Shown: in pieces, positions 36,071-45,177 of the stretch
How the letters are laid out: each line of letters begins with the position of its first letter
How positions within the stretch are numbered: position 1 is the stretch's first letter
Translations under genes and position numbers: made by a program
The notes under the pieces: model-generated
Told to the model about the DNA's origin: nothing
Databases searched by the model: none
The model's input: the letters and a program-made list of their open reading frames with translations, nothing else
From: Halovenus rubra
GTDB taxonomy: Archaea; Halobacteriota; Halobacteria; Halobacteriales; Haloarculaceae
Assembly (NCBI RefSeq): GCF_026586665.1
Contig: NZ_JAODIY010000005.1
Location: forward strand, 62,001-126,000
DNA length: 64,000 bases
Direction: 5' to 3'

Positions 36071-36204
36071 GCCCGGGTGGCTTAGCTGGTCATAGCGCCG
36101 CACTCATAGGGTTTCACTAACGCGGCAACTCCGGCATTCCCGTGGGGGGTTTCCCCCACACCTGGGATATGCGGAGATCGAGGGTTCGGAGCCCTCCCCG
36201 GGCA
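36071..36204 (+). tRNA. Elongator tRNA-Met (CAT) with intron
   Basis: Acceptor GCCCGGG (36071-36077) pairs with CCCGGGC (36197-36203), discriminator A at 36204. Anticodon stem CCGCA (36098-36102) pairs with TGCGG (36170-36174); anticodon CAT at 36105-36107. The canonical intron site after position 37 holds an insert of about 60 nt (36109-36168). T-arm GAGGG/CCCTC (36180-36184, 36192-36196) encloses the loop TTCGGAG, which departs from the usual TTCRANY. The G1-C72 pair marks it as elongator, not initiator. A short stem-loop AGGGT-TCAAC-ACCCT at 36214-36228 follows. Confidence 0.93.
36109..36168 (+). other. tRNA-Met intron (endonuclease-spliced)
   Basis: About 60 nt between nucleotides 37 and 38 of the tRNA. 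It begins GGGTTTCAC and ends CCTGGGAT and contains a strong inner hairpin around GTGGGGGGTTTCCCCCAC (36142-36159). Elongator tRNA-Met introns at this site are known in haloarchaea and are removed by the splicing endonuclease at a bulge-helix-bulge. The exact ends are placed from the tRNA fold and could shift by a base. Confidence 0.8.
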
Positions 36205-36265
36205 TACCTAAAAAGGGTTCAACACCCTCTTGCGTTTTCAATATATAAAGAGCAACTGCATAGAG

Positions 36266-36397
36266 TCAGATATCCGCCGCCGAGTCAGATGCATTCGACT
36301 CGCTCGTCCGTTTCTCGGTGAACACGCGCGACAGCATATGAATATCGGTATGCGAGAGCGGTAGAGTCGTGAGTTCCAAAAGACACTCATGGAGTTG
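36266..36397 (-). pseudogene. Possible C-terminal gene fragment between tRNA-Met and the IS
   Basis: A minus-strand frame of 43 sense codons plus a stop ends at 36266 (TGA) and reads ...HECLLELTTLPLSHTDIHML... with a polar acidic end (SESNASDSAADI). It has haloarchaeal-looking composition but no start codon, and the IS left end begins at 36401 right upstream of it. It could be the 3' end of a gene cut by the insertion. I found no matching 5' part beyond the right IS end, and no family is recognised. Confidence 0.28.
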
Positions 36398-36400
36398 TCA

Positions 36401-37337
36401 GGCTCTGGTGAATCGCCAGACGTAGCTTAATTTTGGTGGGTAACGGCTCGTTTGATGTTGCAGACGAAACACATTGCGACGAGTTCGCGGAACTCGCGGT
36501 ACCACGCTCGGGCACGCACGGCGTGGCCGAGCGTACGTTTGATCGAGGAAAACACTGTTTCAGAGAGTGCTCGTTGACCGTAGTCAGCTGCATCGATCCG
36601 CGCGTCGTGTGCGTGATCGATGGGGCGGACTCACGATGTTTGATCAGTGGTCTTACGCCCTCTTCTCGTAATTTCTCGCGTAACTCCTGCCAGTCATAGC
36701 CTTTGTCAGCGGCGAGGCTGTGCAGGTCGCCCGCGTTGCGGAGGGCGACCTGCCAGCCGATCTGCGTGTCGTGGCGTTTCTCCGTCGTACAATGAACGTC
36801 AAGCACAACTTGTGAATCTGTGTCCACGAGCGCGGTTGTTTTCAGCGTCTGGACACGGTAGTTGGTTCGACGGCAGTAGTGTTTGCTGGCGTTCTCACGG
36901 TCGAAATACGTCGAATCGATGGCGGCGTGTCCAGACGGCTCGTGCTCCTGCGCGGAAAGGCGCAGGAGCACTCGCCAGACCGCCATCGTGATTCTATCAA
37001 ACCACTTGACTAACGTCGAATGATCAGGTAGATCGTCCGGTTCGAGCCCTATTTCAGCCAAAGTTTGCTGTATCTTACTCAGCAAATCTAGTGCTTCGCG
37101 GTAGGATTTTGCCAAGTAAATCCGCAGACAGTGCAGGGAAACGACGGCGTAGTCGGCGAAGCCGCCACCCCCTTCGGGGGCGGCAGCTTCACCTCGGCCA
37201 CCAACAGCATTTTTTGCTAACGTCACCACTCTCTGCGTGAAGCGGGAAATCTTCGACATAGGATAATCGCGGTTTCCCGCTTCAACCTTCTAGCTCTGAC
37301 GGTTCGTTCCAGTGCCGTCTAGTGATTCACCAGAGCC
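36401..37337 (-). mobile_element. IS5-type insertion sequence with 22-bp imperfect terminal inverted repeats
   Basis: About 937 bp. Left end 36401-36422 begins GGCTCTGGTGAATC; right end 37316-37337 is its inverted copy, with 19 of 22 positions matching and the outer 14 bp perfect. One transposase gene lies inside on the minus strand. I see no clear target-site duplication next to the repeats. The element is adjacent to tRNA-Met, inside the proposed integrated element. Confidence 0.85.
36427..37259 (-). pseudogene. IS5-family DDE transposase, frameshifted
   Basis: Residues 1-212 read as a haloarchaeal IS5-type transposase: catalytic Asp in AAIDSTYFD (Asp115) and AADKGYD (Asp185). After LIKHRESAP the frame departs at a run of four G/C at 36622-36625. 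In the next frame the protein continues correctly (IDHAHDARIDAADYGQRALSETVFSSIKR ... REFRELVAMCFVCN) to a stop at 36427. The open frame as it stands runs to 36387 and lacks the catalytic Glu of SETVF. The change fits loss of one C. It is either a dead copy or, less likely, needs programmed frameshifting. Confidence 0.82.
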
Positions 37338-37519
37338 CCATGAACTAACGCAGAGCCAGGCCCAGAGATACCCATCTTGCCTAATCTGAAGAGCAATGTA
37401 TATATCACCTTCTCCTTTGAGTTCTCGGTACTATTGATGGACACTGTGTTACATCTTTCTGTAGTAACTACAAAAATTACTATGTCGGATCTTGAGTGAG
37501 TATAAATTGATATGGTATG

Positions 37520-38092
37520 TTACTCTTTTTCACTCAGAGAAAAGCTCCATTCAAATTGTTGTTTATCAGATTCTTTTTGCTGTGGCTTCGTAACTGTGAA
37601 CGTAACCTCAAACGCAAATTCCGCAGGAATTTCCTTCGGGAGATCTTCGGTTTGTCTGCCGACTAAGACTAGTGGTTGTGTGTGAGTTTCGTCTGGTGAT
37701 AGTTTGGCAGTTTGAATTTCTGCGTCGATACTTATCGGCGTCGAGGCTTGCCAGAAACCTAATTCTTCGTTGTACTCGTAAGGGCGCTCACCTTTTAGTA
37801 AGAGTATGAATTTATTGATTTCTAGAAATATACCTAAAACTTCACGCCGTTCATTGTACCTGATTAAATCATTTGTATTATTCGTCACTGAGATCTCAAT
37901 CGTCAGTGGTGCCTCTTCTGATTGGATATCTGATTGTAGTATTGTGGCTTCATGGTGAAGTGGGCGGCTTGACGACACCTCTTTAGTCGTCGCTGTATAT
38001 TGTTGGATTTCGTCTGAATCGGTAGATAAACACCCACTAAACGTGATCGTACAAAGACTTCCCAGACTGGAGAGGAATACCCGTCGTTCCAT
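37520..38092 (-). CDS. Lipoprotein of unknown function
   Basis: 190 residues. N-terminus MERRVFLSSLGSLCTITFSGC: Arg pair, hydrophobic stretch and lipobox FSGC, so it is exported and lipid-anchored. The rest looks like a beta-rich domain (TIEISVTNNTNDLIRYNE, AEFAFEVTFTVTKP) of immunoglobulin-like type seen in many haloarchaeal lipoproteins. The DNA is clearly more AT-rich than the neighbouring core genes, in keeping with transfer. It lies about 180 bp from the IS right end. Function unknown. Confidence 0.65.
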   Translation of the reverse strand: MERRVFLSSLGSLCTITFSGCLSTDSDEIQQYTATTKEVSSSRPLHHEATILQSDIQSEEAPLTIEISVTNNTNDLIRYNERREVLGIFLEINKFILLLKGERPYEYNEELGFWQASTPISIDAEIQTAKLSPDETHTQPLVLVGRQTEDLPKEIPAEFAFEVTFTVTKPQQKESDKQQFEWSFSLSEKE

Positions 38093-38358
38093 ACAATTAT
38101 ATTTAATTTTAAATGGGGTATATTTTTCCCCGTAAAGAATTGTTTAGATTACTTTCAGTGTAAGGTTGTTTTGAGTTGTCGATAAAACCTGCACTGGTTA
38201 TTATAAAATGGAACTTATTTAAGTCATAGACGGACCGCTGTTTGACTGAACACCTAGGATTTATGAAAACAATTTGTAGGGACTATGGTGGCAAATTATT
38301 GTTTGATGAGGTTTCGGCTGGTGTAATTAAGCCAACCAGGATAGACCGAACTTGCTGG
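38093..38358. other. AT-rich non-coding stretch inside the island
   Basis: Together with the following fragment this makes about 420 bp between the two lipoprotein genes. It is strongly AT-rich (for example TTAATTTTAAATGGGGTATATTTTT at the left end, which also holds the likely promoter of the 37520-38092 gene). I see no start codon with a plausible reading frame and no tRNA-like fold. Confidence 0.5.
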
Positions 38359-38514
38359 TCAACCATCGCCATTATTCTCCTCGGGATCGTTGATGAGTTC
38401 GTATAGGCCCACGTCGTACAGGTTGACGACATGGTCATGCTCCTTGAAGCGTTGAAGGCGCTGGCCGATGTGCCAACAACTGTTATGCTGAATGAAAGAA
38501 CAGCACTGTACTGC
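38359..38514 (-). pseudogene. Winged-helix DNA-binding fragment downstream of the PQQ-repeat gene
   Basis: The frame directly after the stop of the PQQ-repeat gene, and in phase with it, reads HIGQRLQRFKEHDHVVNLYD then VGLYELINDPEEN before a TGA at 38359-38361. This resembles the recognition helix, wing and tail of a haloarchaeal wHTH regulator (pattern RL..F..H..V..LYDVGLYEL..DPEE). It has no start codon and no N-terminal helices, so it is a remnant if real. Confidence 0.38.
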
Positions 38515-39726
38515 TCACGTACCAATAGCATAAATATCGCCAGCTGCCGTTCCGAGAAAAACACCGTCCTCTGTCACGACTGGTGCACACGAGACAGCTC
38601 GTTTTTTCTCGTGACCCACGATCCCTTCTTCGACTGTTTGTTCCCACAGGTGCGTCCCATCCGTCAAATCCAGACAGACTGCACGATCACCGGGAACGAG
38701 AAGTGTCTCACCCGCAATCACTGGCGCACTGCCGATAGATGTGTCACTGAGACTCTCTGTCCACTGATGTGTTCCGTCATCGCTATCAAAAATCTTGATG
38801 GTGTCCATCACAGGAACGTATACCGTGTTGGAGGTTGCTGCAACTGATGCACTCACATTCATCTCCTTACTCCATGTTTCCGTGCCTTCGGTAGCGTCGA
38901 GTGCGTATAGCCGGTCAGCAAAATCGGAGGCGATATAGACTGTCTCATCCACGACTGTCGGCGGCATATGCACCCGATCTGCCGTTGGAAACTCCCATTG
39001 CTTGTCGCCTGTCTCTGCATCTATTGCATACACGATACTTTCCTTGCCACCACCGACATAGACTGTCCCGTCGGCGACCGCTGGGGTTGGTGACATCTGT
39101 CCTGTTGGAAACCGCCAGAGCACACGTCCATCAGCAGCGTCTACCGCGAGAATTGCTTTGATCAGTGATTTACCGCTTTCAAGGGCAGAGACATAGATGG
39201 TCCCCTCAACGAGTGTCGGACTCGATATAGGATTAATTGAATCCAGCCACCACTGTTCGCTCCCGTCCGACAGGTCAAGTGCGCTGAGGCCGGCCTCGCC
39301 TTCCTTGTTCCAGGCCACGTAAGCAGTCTCAGCTGAGAGGACGGGCGTAACCGCAGGAGTCCGTCCGTTCTGACCAGATTCAGCCCGCCAGCGTTCGGTT
39401 CCGTCGCTGGGGTCAAGCGAATGAATCGCCTCCCGTGTCGCTACGACCAAGTGATCTTCACGGGCTACAAGCCCATCTATCGGCTCATCGTTAGCGTTTA
39501 ATTCGTCTCGGCGTTTCCGCCACAGCAGATCGTTATCCGTCGGTGGACTCGTCCCGGTGACGTTCGTGTTCTGGGCGTCGTACTGGTACTGCTGGGGCTC
39601 AGTTGGGGGCTGTTCCGCTGGAGGGAGATCTCCGAGGGATCCTGAGTTGAGGCAACCAGCGAGGCTGACGGCGATTGCGGACCCACTCAGGGCGAGAGCG
39701 GACCGTCGTGTATATTGACGTGTCAT
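38515..39726 (-). CDS. PQQ-repeat beta-propeller lipoprotein
   Basis: 403 residues. N-terminus MTRQYTRRSALALSGSAIAV with twin Arg and lipobox SLAGC (Cys25): a Tat-exported lipoprotein. A Pro/Gln-rich linker (about 30-50) is followed by six or seven repeats with the PQQ-like pattern (LDPSDGTERWRAE, LDLSDGSEQWW, VDAADGRVLWRFP, IDAETGDKQWEFP, LDATEGTETWSKE, FDSDDGTHQWTE, LDLTDGTHLWEQ). These form a beta-propeller. BamB-like proteins share the fold, but in archaea such propellers have no defined job. Cargo of the proposed island. Confidence 0.85.
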   Translation of the reverse strand: MTRQYTRRSALALSGSAIAVSLAGCLNSGSLGDLPPAEQPPTEPQQYQYDAQNTNVTGTSPPTDNDLLWRKRRDELNANDEPIDGLVAREDHLVVATREAIHSLDPSDGTERWRAESGQNGRTPAVTPVLSAETAYVAWNKEGEAGLSALDLSDGSEQWWLDSINPISSPTLVEGTIYVSALESGKSLIKAILAVDAADGRVLWRFPTGQMSPTPAVADGTVYVGGGKESIVYAIDAETGDKQWEFPTADRVHMPPTVVDETVYIASDFADRLYALDATEGTETWSKEMNVSASVAATSNTVYVPVMDTIKIFDSDDGTHQWTESLSDTSIGSAPVIAGETLLVPGDRAVCLDLTDGTHLWEQTVEEGIVGHEKKRAVSCAPVVTEDGVFLGTAAGDIYAIGT

Positions 39727-40106
39727 TTATCTGTCTGGCCGTCTGAAACAATGGACGTATTGGTAATCAATTTTTTGCAGGCTAAAACGCCGAGGAATCA
39801 TCACCTGCTACATACTGTGAAATAATTATACCCTGTATAGTTTTTTTATTTGACTATTTATAAGATTGTAATTAACTATGGACTCCTTGAGATATTTTCC
39901 CAACTTCTACCCACCACCCAGGGGTCTCCAGTCTCAGAAAACTACAGACATTCTGAAACCATGGCTGATGTTTACTCTTTCTCGGGTTTTTCCTACTGAC
40001 AGCTATCATGCTGGTAATTTTCCTATGAGTGCGATTGAACTCCCGACCACGAACAGAAGCGACAGCAGAACCTCGAACACCAACGACTGACGGGCATGCA
40101 AAGCTC
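39727..40106. other. Non-coding stretch at the right end of the island
   Basis: About 380 bp. The part next to the PQQ-repeat gene is AT-rich and should hold its promoter; a short palindrome TATAC-CCT-GTATA lies at 39827-39839. Overlapping open frames at 39872-40138 (minus) and 39878-40090 (plus) both have unhalophilic, basic translations and are probably not genes. The stretch ends at the degenerate tRNA-Met copy. Confidence 0.5.
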
Positions 40107-40132
40107 GGGTGTAGAACTCTCTCCGGGCATAC
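40107..40132 (+). other. Degenerate copy of tRNA-Met 3' end (putative attachment site)
   Basis: Aligns with the tRNA-Met T-arm and acceptor 3' strand at 36182-36207: identical at GGGT, GA, C, CTC and the 10-bp CCGGGCATAC, differing mostly by transitions. It lies outside any tRNA fold and 105 bp before tRNA-Gln. In integrated elements the far att copy carries just such a tRNA 3' segment. Confidence 0.5.
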
Positions 40133-40237
40133 TTTCAAACAATAACGAAAACTGTGAGTGATCGGTATTCGCTTTTATTTCCCAGTTGGAAACTTTGGCC
40201 TAATAGCTACTTGCTGTTCGTTTAGTACCACAAAAAG

Positions 40238-40310
40238 TAGTCCCGGGAAGATTCGAACTTCCGTCGTCAGCCCCAGAAGCTGACAGGATTGGCCACTACC
40301 CCACGGGACT
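40238..40310 (-). tRNA. tRNA-Gln (CTG)
   Basis: 73 nt on the minus strand. Acceptor AGTCCCG (40310-40304) pairs with CGGGACT, discriminator A at 40238. Anticodon stem TCAGC/GCTGA closes the loop TTCTGGG with anticodon CTG (Gln). T-arm GGAAG-TTCGAAT-CTTCC is canonical. No intron. A TATA-like CATAAATACACC just upstream (about 40330-40341 on the minus strand) may be its promoter. Confidence 0.93.
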
Positions 40311-40433
40311 TCGATTTTGCATAATTCGCGGGTGTATTTATGCGTGTCGAAGCAGCCGAATGGTATGTCACTTCTCAACGCACTAGCTAGCGACACCCCC
40401 TGAGTTTATATCCTCTGACGGAACCAGACGTCT

Positions 40434-40495
40434 CATGCGCTGACCAACTACCACGAAGCGACACACGAGAGTCCGGCAGACCGCTTCGTGTTTTT
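40434..40495 (+). ncRNA. Candidate small RNA with terminator-like hairpin
   Basis: In the 314-bp gap between tRNA-Gln and purO, a TATA-like TTTATAT lies at 40405-40411. A start about 25 bp later would give an RNA of about 60 nt ending in a stem CACGAAGCG (40452-40460) with CGCTTCGTG (40482-40490), perfect 9 bp, followed at once by TTTTT (40491-40495). There is no ORF in it. A promoter and an intrinsic-type end are present but nothing shows expression. The remaining gap shows no other feature. Confidence 0.4.
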
Positions 40496-40624
40496 CGAGA
40501 GCTATCTGGTTATTAGCTCCCGTGTCGGCTGCTGGTTATTTATCTTACTGGCGGGGAATTGCATCACAGATAGCCAAGCACTATCGACACCTACATGCCA
40601 CCTCGCGGGCGACACTCGGATAGC

Positions 40625-43855: not shown

Positions 43856-44010
43856 CATCCTCCGCGCCGTGAACGGCGCGGCTTCCCACGCATGGGGAAT
43901 ACCAGCTAAGTTTCTCTGTTGCTGGCAGAGGGTTCCGACCCGTGGAACGCCGAGAGAGTCATTTGCGAGTGTTTCTCGCTCGTCTCTCGGTGGGTCGTGG
44001 TGCTGTCACA
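43856..44010 (-). ncRNA. Predicted omega RNA (reRNA) scaffold of TnpB
   Basis: TnpB guide RNAs span the 3' end of tnpB and the element's right end, and use the next 16-20 nt outside as guide. Here the terminal hairpin at 43862-43881 fits. The flanking bases would be the antisense of the thrC 3' end (reading CTCGTGCCCTAAGCC leftward from 43852). The left boundary inside tnpB is a guess from family knowledge. Confidence 0.4.
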
Positions 44011-45177
44011 GGCACTCCCATCCCAAGGCGAGTCATTGCCTGCCGGTTTCAGCGGCACGCTCTCTCCCCACGGGTCAGCCCGTTGTGCAACGTTGATTGC
44101 GCCGTTTATGTCGCCCTGAAACTCCGATACGTGGCACTTGTCGTTGGTACACCGGAACGTGGCTTGTGCAGCTCTGTTTCCGATGTGGCCGCAAGCGTGG
44201 CACGTCTGGCTTGTGTACTCCGGTTGGACGTACTCGACAGGGATACCAGTCTCTCGTGCCTTGTCCTCGACACGGTTCTGTAACCGAGCGAACGCCCACG
44301 CATGGAGTCGCCGGTTCATGTACGAACCGTAGTCCAATTCTTCGCGGATGTACGTCAGATTCTCCATCACGAGTACTGGATTCTCGAATTGTCGGGCGTA
44401 CTCGACAGCCTGCCGAGACGCCTTCTCGACAATATCGGTGAGCGCGTTCTGGTAGTGGTCGAATCGCTCGTCTATCCGCCACTCAGCGGCATCACGCTCT
44501 TGGAGTCGTTTCAGGGTCGTGTGCATCTCTTTGCGAAGATGCTTCGCACGGCTCCCGTCACACACGAACGGGCCAGTTGGTGAACCGTCCTTGAGGGCAC
44601 AGCCCGTTATCAGGGCGGTTTCACCAATGTCCAGACCGATGTGCGTCACGTCGTCGCCGTCCGTCGCGTAGTCGGGTTCTTCGACCGGAAATTCGACAGT
44701 GACGTGTAGAGTCCACGATGTGCGATTCTGTTGCAGTCGGAGTTGCCCCGCCGAAGCATCCCCGTCTACGAGGTCGTACCACAGACCCTCTTGTTCGGGA
44801 TTGATACGAAGTGGTATCCAGAAATTCGTCCCTCGTCCGGGTTGCGGTGCCCACCATGTAAACCCGTAATCTCGTGCCGGAGAGTGGTCAAACTCGGCGG
44901 CTTGGTTGGTGAGCCGAACCGGGTGGTCGTCGTCCAACTCCTGTGCGTCGTAAGTGTCGTGAAGTTGTGGGACGTAGTTGCATAGGGCCGCTTTCGCCTG
45001 ATACGGCAGGTCGTAGGGCGTCACCACGTCACTGGTTGCGCTCATCGTGTCGCACCCGGCGTCGAACGCCTCGTGTAGCCCCTCACGGTAGGTTTCGAGC
45101 AGGTCACACAGTTTCCGCCCCTTGTGTGCTGTCGGTGGGGCGAGAGTCGCTTTGAGCGTCTTAGTCGTCGTTTCCAT
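43906..45177 (-). CDS. tnpB: TnpB RNA-guided endonuclease
   Basis: 423 residues, intact. RuvC-like catalytic residues: Asp in HIGLDIGETAL, Glu in VLVMENLTYI, Asp in FQGDINGAIN. Zinc finger TSQTCHACGH and RCTNDKC. N-terminal WED/REC-like region up to about residue 185. TnpB proteins cut DNA under guidance of an RNA made from the element's end and help the element persist. All catalytic residues are kept, so it may be active. The last 50 residues are a low-complexity tail. Its start overlaps a 41-residue ORF by 17 bp. Confidence 0.93.
   Translation of the reverse strand: METTTKTLKATLAPPTAHKGRKLCDLLETYREGLHEAFDAGCDTMSATSDVVTPYDLPYQAKAALCNYVPQLHDTYDAQELDDDHPVRLTNQAAEFDHSPARDYGFTWWAPQPGRGTNFWIPLRINPEQEGLWYDLVDGDASAGQLRLQQNRTSWTLHVTVEFPVEEPDYATDGDDVTHIGLDIGETALITGCALKDGSPTGPFVCDGSRAKHLRKEMHTTLKRLQERDAAEWRIDERFDHYQNALTDIVEKASRQAVEYARQFENPVLVMENLTYIREELDYGSYMNRRLHAWAFARLQNRVEDKARETGIPVEYVQPEYTSQTCHACGHIGNRAAQATFRCTNDKCHVSEFQGDINGAINVAQRADPWGESVPLKPAGNDSPWDGSACDSTTTHRETSEKHSQMTLSAFHGSEPSASNRET

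What the first reader, a model, noticed from the sequence alone, without database searches (positions are those of the whole stretch)
36182..40132. Decayed integrative element bounded by a duplicated tRNA-Met 3' end
Seen: 36189-36207 (end of tRNA-Met) and 40114-40132 match at 16 of 19 bases with only transitions between them, sharing exact CCGGGCATAC, and upstream GGGT also aligns. The enclosed 3.9 kb is AT-rich and holds an IS, two lipoproteins, gene scraps and non-coding DNA. Known: archaeal integrases use tRNA 3' ends and leave such copies. Inference: an old integrated plasmid or virus that lost its integrase. If right, its lipoproteins and the wHTH scrap are cargo from that element.
Basis: partly seen in the sequence, partly recalled or inferred. 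Interest (0 to 1): 0.7.

Follow-up and report, generated by a model that had tools for sequence, protein, structure and literature searches.

The report
Virus relic at a tRNA-Met gene
A 3.9-kb patch beside a methionine tRNA gene in a salt-loving archaeon is the worn-down remnant of a virus that once inserted itself there: one virus attachment end, a scrap of one virus gene and later insertions survive, and intact cousins sit at the same tRNA in related species.

Summary
The repeat is real: 16/19, with 0 of 1000 dinucleotide shuffles as good. It extends well beyond tRNA sequence. Window 40092-40129 (GGGCATGCAAAGCTCGGGTGTAGAACTCTCTCCGGGCA) matches the integrase-side attR of tRNA-Met proviruses. 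A pattern built from those sites hits 6 of 148 family genomes and no control. The other five carry an intact integrase beside the site and tRNA-Met 38-49 kb away; the sixth is this window, at 3.9 kb. The one whose structural genes were scanned is head-tailed. Temperate haloviruses BJ1 and Humcor1 share the integrase family, and Humcor1's record places its attP at tRNA-Met. The 'wHTH scrap' is the C-terminus of viral family phrog_38164, present in the G022 and G066 proviruses and BJ1. A sister genome has the empty site, with the same ~108-bp spacing to tRNA-Gln. Corrections: it was a virus; no integrase remains; the lipoproteins are not shown to be viral cargo; and the left end is not this virus's arm. 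It is a different motif found 8 nt past four kinds of tRNA, so the locus is probably a composite of two integrations.

The parts
36071..36204 (+). tRNA-Met(CAT) with 60-nt intron; its 3' end is the integration target (attB)
   Evidence: ARAGORN with introns; conserved in 56 of 60 relatives
36208..36252 (+). Motif M and its arm: TAAAAAGGGTTCAACACCCTCTTGCG...TATATAAAGAGC, probable end of a second, different tRNA-targeting element
   Evidence: Found 8 nt past the discriminator base of tRNA-Met, two tRNA-Thr and tRNA-Ser genes in relatives; not the arm of the five intact proviruses
36401..37337 (-). Insertion sequence with 14-bp inverted ends and a DDE_Tnp_1 transposase ORF (36387-37259); later passenger
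   Evidence: partial copies elsewhere in the genome
37520..38092 (-). Small lipoprotein gene (190 aa), patchy accessory gene of unproven origin
   Evidence: Nearest orthologue only in G001, 63%, not at tRNA-Met
38365..38481 (-).
   Evidence: 55.6% aa identity to a protein inside the G022 provirus, E 1e-10; phrog_38164 E 3.9e-10; homologue in BJ1
38515..39726 (-). PQQ/BamB-type beta-propeller lipoprotein gene (403 aa), patchy accessory gene of unproven origin
   Evidence: Pfam PQQ_2; only close orthologue in G017, 79%, not at tRNA-Met
40092..40110 (+). Integrase-side att arm GGGCATGCAAAGCTCGGGT of a BJ1-type provirus
   Evidence: Pattern hits 6 of 148 genomes, 0 control; arm-only score 33.5 bits against shuffle maximum 22.8
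40112..40129 (+). attR core: partial copy of the tRNA-Met 3' end
   Evidence: lies 109 bp from tRNA-Gln, as the tRNA-Met 3' end does in the empty site of G001 (108 bp)
40237..40310 (-). tRNA-Gln(CTG), the first host gene beyond the scar
   Evidence: ARAGORN; same neighbour in G001 and G003

Best explanation
A BJ1/Humcor1-type temperate tailed virus of haloarchaea integrated, by its tyrosine integrase, into the 3' end of tRNA-Met, between tRNA-Met and tRNA-Gln. The integrase recombined the tRNA 3' end carried in its attP with the chromosomal copy. The tRNA stayed whole on the left, and the far end kept the integrase-side arm plus a partial tRNA copy (attR, 40092-40129). The provirus then decayed from about 40 kb to 3.9 kb: integrase, structural genes and left arm are gone, and one fragment of a viral gene (phrog_38164) remains. 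An IS and two lipoprotein genes now fill the gap. The motif just right of tRNA-Met is the end of a different tRNA-targeting element, so the left side was probably overwritten by a second integration. Shown: the attR arm and core, the viral gene scrap, the empty site, intact relatives. Inferred: order of events, the second element, and how the lipoprotein genes arrived.
For: Repeat beyond chance. The attR pattern occurs in 6 of 148 family genomes and no control; the other five have an intact integrase at the site and tRNA-Met 37.9-49.0 kb away on the same contig and strand. Matrix score 54.7 bits against 8.0 in shuffles; arm alone 33.5 against 22.8. G031 provirus encodes portal, head, tail and primase proteins. 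BJ1 has the same arm and the same 39-nt spacing, and Humcor1's record places its attP at tRNA-Met beside the integrase. The scrap at 38365-38481 matches a G022 provirus protein and BJ1. Empty site in G001 with equal spacing to tRNA-Gln.
Against: No integrase trace, no virion gene and no left arm CTTTACATACCC remain. The left end carries motif M instead. The phrog_38164 family is widespread (40 of 148 genomes), so the scrap alone is weak. Sequence of the right flank is not recognisably like G001.
Confidence: 0.87

Rival explanations
1. Single element with unlike arms: motif M at 36208-36252 is the left arm of the same element whose right arm is at 40092, so the interval is one element decayed internally, not a composite of two.
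For: M and the attR arm occur at one place in Halostagnicola sp. A56; M is mobile among tRNAs.
Against: All five intact proviruses with this attR have the left arm CTTTACATACCC, an inverted copy of the right arm, and so does BJ1's attP (GACATGCCC). In A56, M lies outside attR in chromosomal DNA beside gyrA/gyrB.
Confidence: 0.25
2. The element was a non-viral integrative plasmid or island that uses the same integrase type.
For: The integrase family also occurs away from tRNA-Met, beside other tRNA 3'-end-like sequences, and relatives occur on haloarchaeal plasmids.
Against: All five intact holders of this attR lie 38-49 kb from tRNA-Met; the one scanned in detail is head-tailed, and two carry the phrog_38164 gene that survives as a scrap here.
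Confidence: 0.08
3. The element was an SNJ2-type pleolipovirus, which is known to integrate at tRNA-Met.
For: SNJ2 integrates into tRNA-Met of Natrinema sp. J7-1 (PMC5867852).
Against: The surviving arm matches BJ1-type integrases; no pleolipovirus gene was seen. The SNJ2 attP was not compared directly.
Confidence: 0.03
4. Chance repeat plus ordinary accessory genes; no integration took place here.
For: G003 has a 4.4-kb insert at the same gap with no second tRNA-Met copy found, so accessory DNA can enter without leaving a repeat.
Against: 0 of 1000 shuffles match the repeat, and the flanking arm, which is not tRNA sequence, scores far above shuffles.
Confidence: 0.02

Closest known systems
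Halorubrum viruses BJ1 (NC_008695) and Humcor1 (MW344765), Graaviviridae, Caudoviricetes
   Same: BJ1: same att arm GGGCATGTAAA and same 39-nt spacing to the tRNA-Met-type core, and a phrog_38164 homologue. Humcor1: attP annotated at the tRNA-Met 3' end beside an integrase. Both share the integrase family
   Different: Here integrase, virion genes and left arm are lost; only attR and one gene fragment remain
   Same: Same attR sequence and orientation at the same tRNA; G022 and G066 carry the gene of which the window keeps a scrap
   Different: Those are 38-49 kb with intact integrase and left arm CTTTACATACCC; the window interval is 3.9 kb with motif M on the left
Haloquadratum walsbyi tRNA-Thr remnant (PMC3119063)
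   Same: Imperfect partial tRNA copy 6.7 kb downstream, pseudogenes between, no integrase; read by its authors as a prophage or integrative plasmid remnant
   Different: Other tRNA; there the parent element was not identified
SNJ2 (betapleolipovirus)
   Same: Known to integrate at tRNA-Met (PMC5867852)
   Different: Different virus group; its attP was not available to compare and no pleolipovirus gene was seen here

Membership tests
BJ1/Humcor1-type tRNA-Met tailed provirus | tRNA-Met 3'-end core next to the arm GGGCATGTAAAG at fixed spacing | tested here: met
   Window 40092-40129
BJ1/Humcor1-type tRNA-Met tailed provirus | Tyrosine integrase gene about 20 bp inside the arm | tested here: not met
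   tblastn with four integrases finds nothing above noise; gene lost, so a relic and not a working member
BJ1/Humcor1-type tRNA-Met tailed provirus | Left inner arm CTTTACATACCC, inverted copy of the right arm | tested here: not met
   Motif M is there instead
BJ1/Humcor1-type tRNA-Met tailed provirus | Virion genes (portal, head, tail) | tested here: not met
   Systematic tblastn of provirus ORFs against 36208-40088
BJ1/Humcor1-type tRNA-Met tailed provirus | phrog_38164 small protein | tested here: met
   C-terminal fragment only
tRNA-integrated element (general) | Empty site in a relative joining the tRNA directly to the far flank | tested here: met
   G001
SNJ2-type pleolipovirus provirus | SNJ2-type integrase, its att arms and pleolipovirus genes | not tested
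   No SNJ2 sequence was compared; tRNA-Met use is from PMC5867852 only

The most novel reading that the evidence does not exclude
Motif M marks an undescribed family of haloarchaeal integrative elements whose end carries a second, T-arm-like sequence at a fixed 33-nt offset from the tRNA T-arm, in several loci followed by a gene with a HicA-like tail facing the tRNA. The family has switched among at least four tRNA targets (Met, Thr-CGT, Thr-TGT, Ser-GGA) while keeping the same arm. The window would then be a composite scar of this family and a BJ1-type virus.
Probability: 0.4. Interest if true: 0.5.

Novelty: new member of a known kind. Interest (0 to 1): 0.36.

Why it matters
It turns a 19-base repeat into an identified virus scar and gives a usable diagnostic: GGGCATGTAAAGNTCGGGT beside CYCTCCCCGGGCA flags BJ1-type integrations at tRNA-Met even when the integrase is gone (6 hits in 148 genomes, no control hit). 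It adds to evidence that the tRNA-Met 3' end is a repeatedly used virus landing site in haloarchaea, and it exposes a conserved motif after four different tRNAs that deserves its own study.

Tried and rejected
SNJ2 pleolipovirus was the first candidate (tRNA-Met target); set aside when the att arm matched BJ1-type integrases. I first read motif M as attL of the same element as the right copy; weakened when five intact proviruses showed a different left arm, when M turned up after tRNA-Thr and tRNA-Ser, and when the A56 site proved chromosomal, next to gyrA/gyrB. An integrase remnant was sought by low-stringency tblastn: nothing above noise. Similarity of the 109-bp right flank to G001 is not significant (110 of 500 shuffles as good); only its length agrees. 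Lipoproteins as viral cargo: no credible relatives in the provirus loci compared; PQQ hits near tRNA-Met in G013 and G125 are weak paralogues (28-39%). Pfam gives no family for the wHTH scrap, ORF 39878 or the one short M-end protein tried. IMG/VR has no exact copy of motif M, and DNA searches of phage records with the M end gave only weak hits to bacteriophages. The local integrase screen with a few reference integrases was too narrow and led nowhere; what worked was the motif scan of named genomes.
Full report
OBSERVATION. The window holds a tRNA-Met(CAT) gene at 36071-36204 with a 60-nt intron, so the first ARAGORN run without introns listed only tRNA-Gln. The 19-mer 36189-36207 recurs at 40114-40132 with 16 matches; no other place in the 64 kb, on either strand, reaches 15, and none of 1000 dinucleotide shuffles of 36208-40500 does. 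The low-GC stretches are the non-coding parts and the part with the first lipoprotein gene (41%), not the IS or the PQQ gene (56%).

EMPTY SITE. In the relative G001 (same genus, nearly complete) the order is tRNA-Met, tRNA-Gln (opposite strand), purO, trmB, thrC, with only 108 bp between the two tRNAs. In G003 a different 4.4-kb insert (a subtilase-like gene among others) fills the same gap, with no second tRNA-Met copy found. In the window the copy at 40129 lies 109 bp from tRNA-Gln, i.e. where the tRNA-Met 3' end lies in G001. The sequences of these 108/109 bp are not recognisably alike.

THE RIGHT END IS A VIRUS attR. A scan for the motif that follows tRNA-Met in the window led to Halostagnicola sp. 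A56, where a partial tRNA-Met copy lies beside an intact tyrosine integrase gene. Its relatives in G022 and G031 (61-62% identical) lie 41 and 37 kb downstream of tRNA-Met, facing back, each about 20 bp from a partial tRNA-Met copy. Between integrase and copy lies an arm, GGGCATGTAAAGCTCGGGT, which is not tRNA sequence. The window has the same arm at 40092-40110. A pattern made from these sites hits six of 148 genomes of the family and no control: G022, G031, G066, G088, G125 and the window. In the five others the distance to tRNA-Met is 37.9 to 49.0 kb, on the same contig and strand, and an integrase (78-97% identical among the pairs compared) sits at the site. A weight matrix of six such sites, none from the window, gives the window site 54.7 bits; the next best place is the tRNA itself with 9.5, and the best in shuffled windows 8.0.

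WHICH VIRUS. The integrase family is found in the temperate tailed haloviruses BJ1 and Humcor1 (about 50%). The Humcor1 record annotates an attP that matches the 3' end of tRNA-Met next to the integrase. BJ1's attP region reads TGGGCATGTAAACACCATGTGTGGAGCCCACCCCGGCCATACACCATATTATTGACATGCCCA: same arm, same 39-nt spacing, and an inverted second arm on the other side. The G031 provirus encodes portal, major head, head protease, tail and primase proteins, with portal and head closest to Halorubrum virus CGphi46 (63% and 52%) and the portal next to BJ1's (44%). So the integrating unit was most likely a head-tailed provirus of about 40 kb. Virion genes were checked in G031 only; the other four are inferred from size, integrase and att.

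A SURVIVING GENE FRAGMENT. Scanned systematically, it is the only provirus gene match that stands clear of the control stretches (the strong matches of the 20-24 kb control stretch are host gyrB). It belongs to phrog_38164 (E 3.9e-10); BJ1 is the only isolated virus with a hit, and the G066 provirus has a copy too. Its orientation relative to tRNA and attR is that of G022. The family is spread over 40 of 148 genomes, so taken alone it would be suggestive only.

WHAT IS MISSING. No integrase trace was found, no virion gene, no left arm CTTTACATACCC. About nine tenths of the provirus is gone.

THE LEFT END. The five intact proviruses all have CT[AC]CT.T.AAACTTTACATACCC after tRNA-Met. The window has instead TACCTAAAAAGGGTTCAACACCCTCTTGCGTTTTCAATATATAAAGAGC. 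This motif M is patchy (6 of 60 relatives at up to 3 mismatches; G042 has a slightly more diverged copy) and sits 8 nt past the discriminator base of four different tRNAs: Met, Thr(CGT), Thr(TGT), Ser(GGA). In several of these loci the adjoining gene, facing the tRNA, ends in a DEF...DRNR tail; from memory its fuller form in G042 looks like HicA, but that was not tested, and Pfam gave no hit for the one short variant tried. The G009 (tRNA-Met) and G017/G006 (tRNA-Thr) copies share the same adjoining gene although the tRNA differs. I read M as the end of another kind of tRNA-targeting element; no integrase has been tied to it. In A56, M lies outside the provirus attR in chromosomal DNA next to gyrA/gyrB; in the window it lies inside. 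Two integrations at one tRNA, in different orders, explain both. A single element with unlike arms is not excluded (confidence 0.25).

THE LIPOPROTEIN GENES. They lie between tRNA and attR, but nothing ties them to the virus. The PQQ protein has one close orthologue (G017, 79%) beside a photolyase-like gene and with no tRNA found nearby; the small lipoprotein has one (G001, 63%) beside a transposase-like fragment. Neither has a credible relative in the provirus loci compared. They are patchy accessory genes that may have come later, with the M-type element, or with the virus.

TAXON.

VERDICT. The finding is right in substance and is sharpened from 'plasmid or virus' to a named kind. It is a relic of a known kind of element; interest is moderate and lies mainly in the diagnostic att arm and in motif M.

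Noticed in passing
window 36208-36252; L090, L091, L092, L093, L094, L095, L041, L098: Motif M, a T-arm-like sequence plus TATATAAAGAGC, lies 8 nt past the discriminator base of four different tRNA genes, in several loci followed by a gene with a DEF...DRNR (HicA-like) end facing the tRNA. Its element and integrase are unknown.
   Followed up: partly
L056, L061, L040, L068, L069, L070: In six other genomes, tandem 18-23 nt copies of the tRNA-Met 3' end stand 127-420 bp downstream of the gene, with almost nothing between.
   Followed up: no
L051 8602-12987: G003 has an unrelated 4.4-kb insert with a subtilase-like gene at the same tRNA-Met/tRNA-Gln gap.
   Followed up: partly
L098/L136 12405-13703: Halostagnicola sp. 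A56 keeps an intact BJ1-type integrase and attR next to gyrA/gyrB, while its tRNA-Met, with a provirus-type left arm, lies on another contig.
   Followed up: partly
window 43906-45177 (-): TnpB-like gene (Cas12f1-like TNB domain) just downstream of thrC.
   Followed up: no
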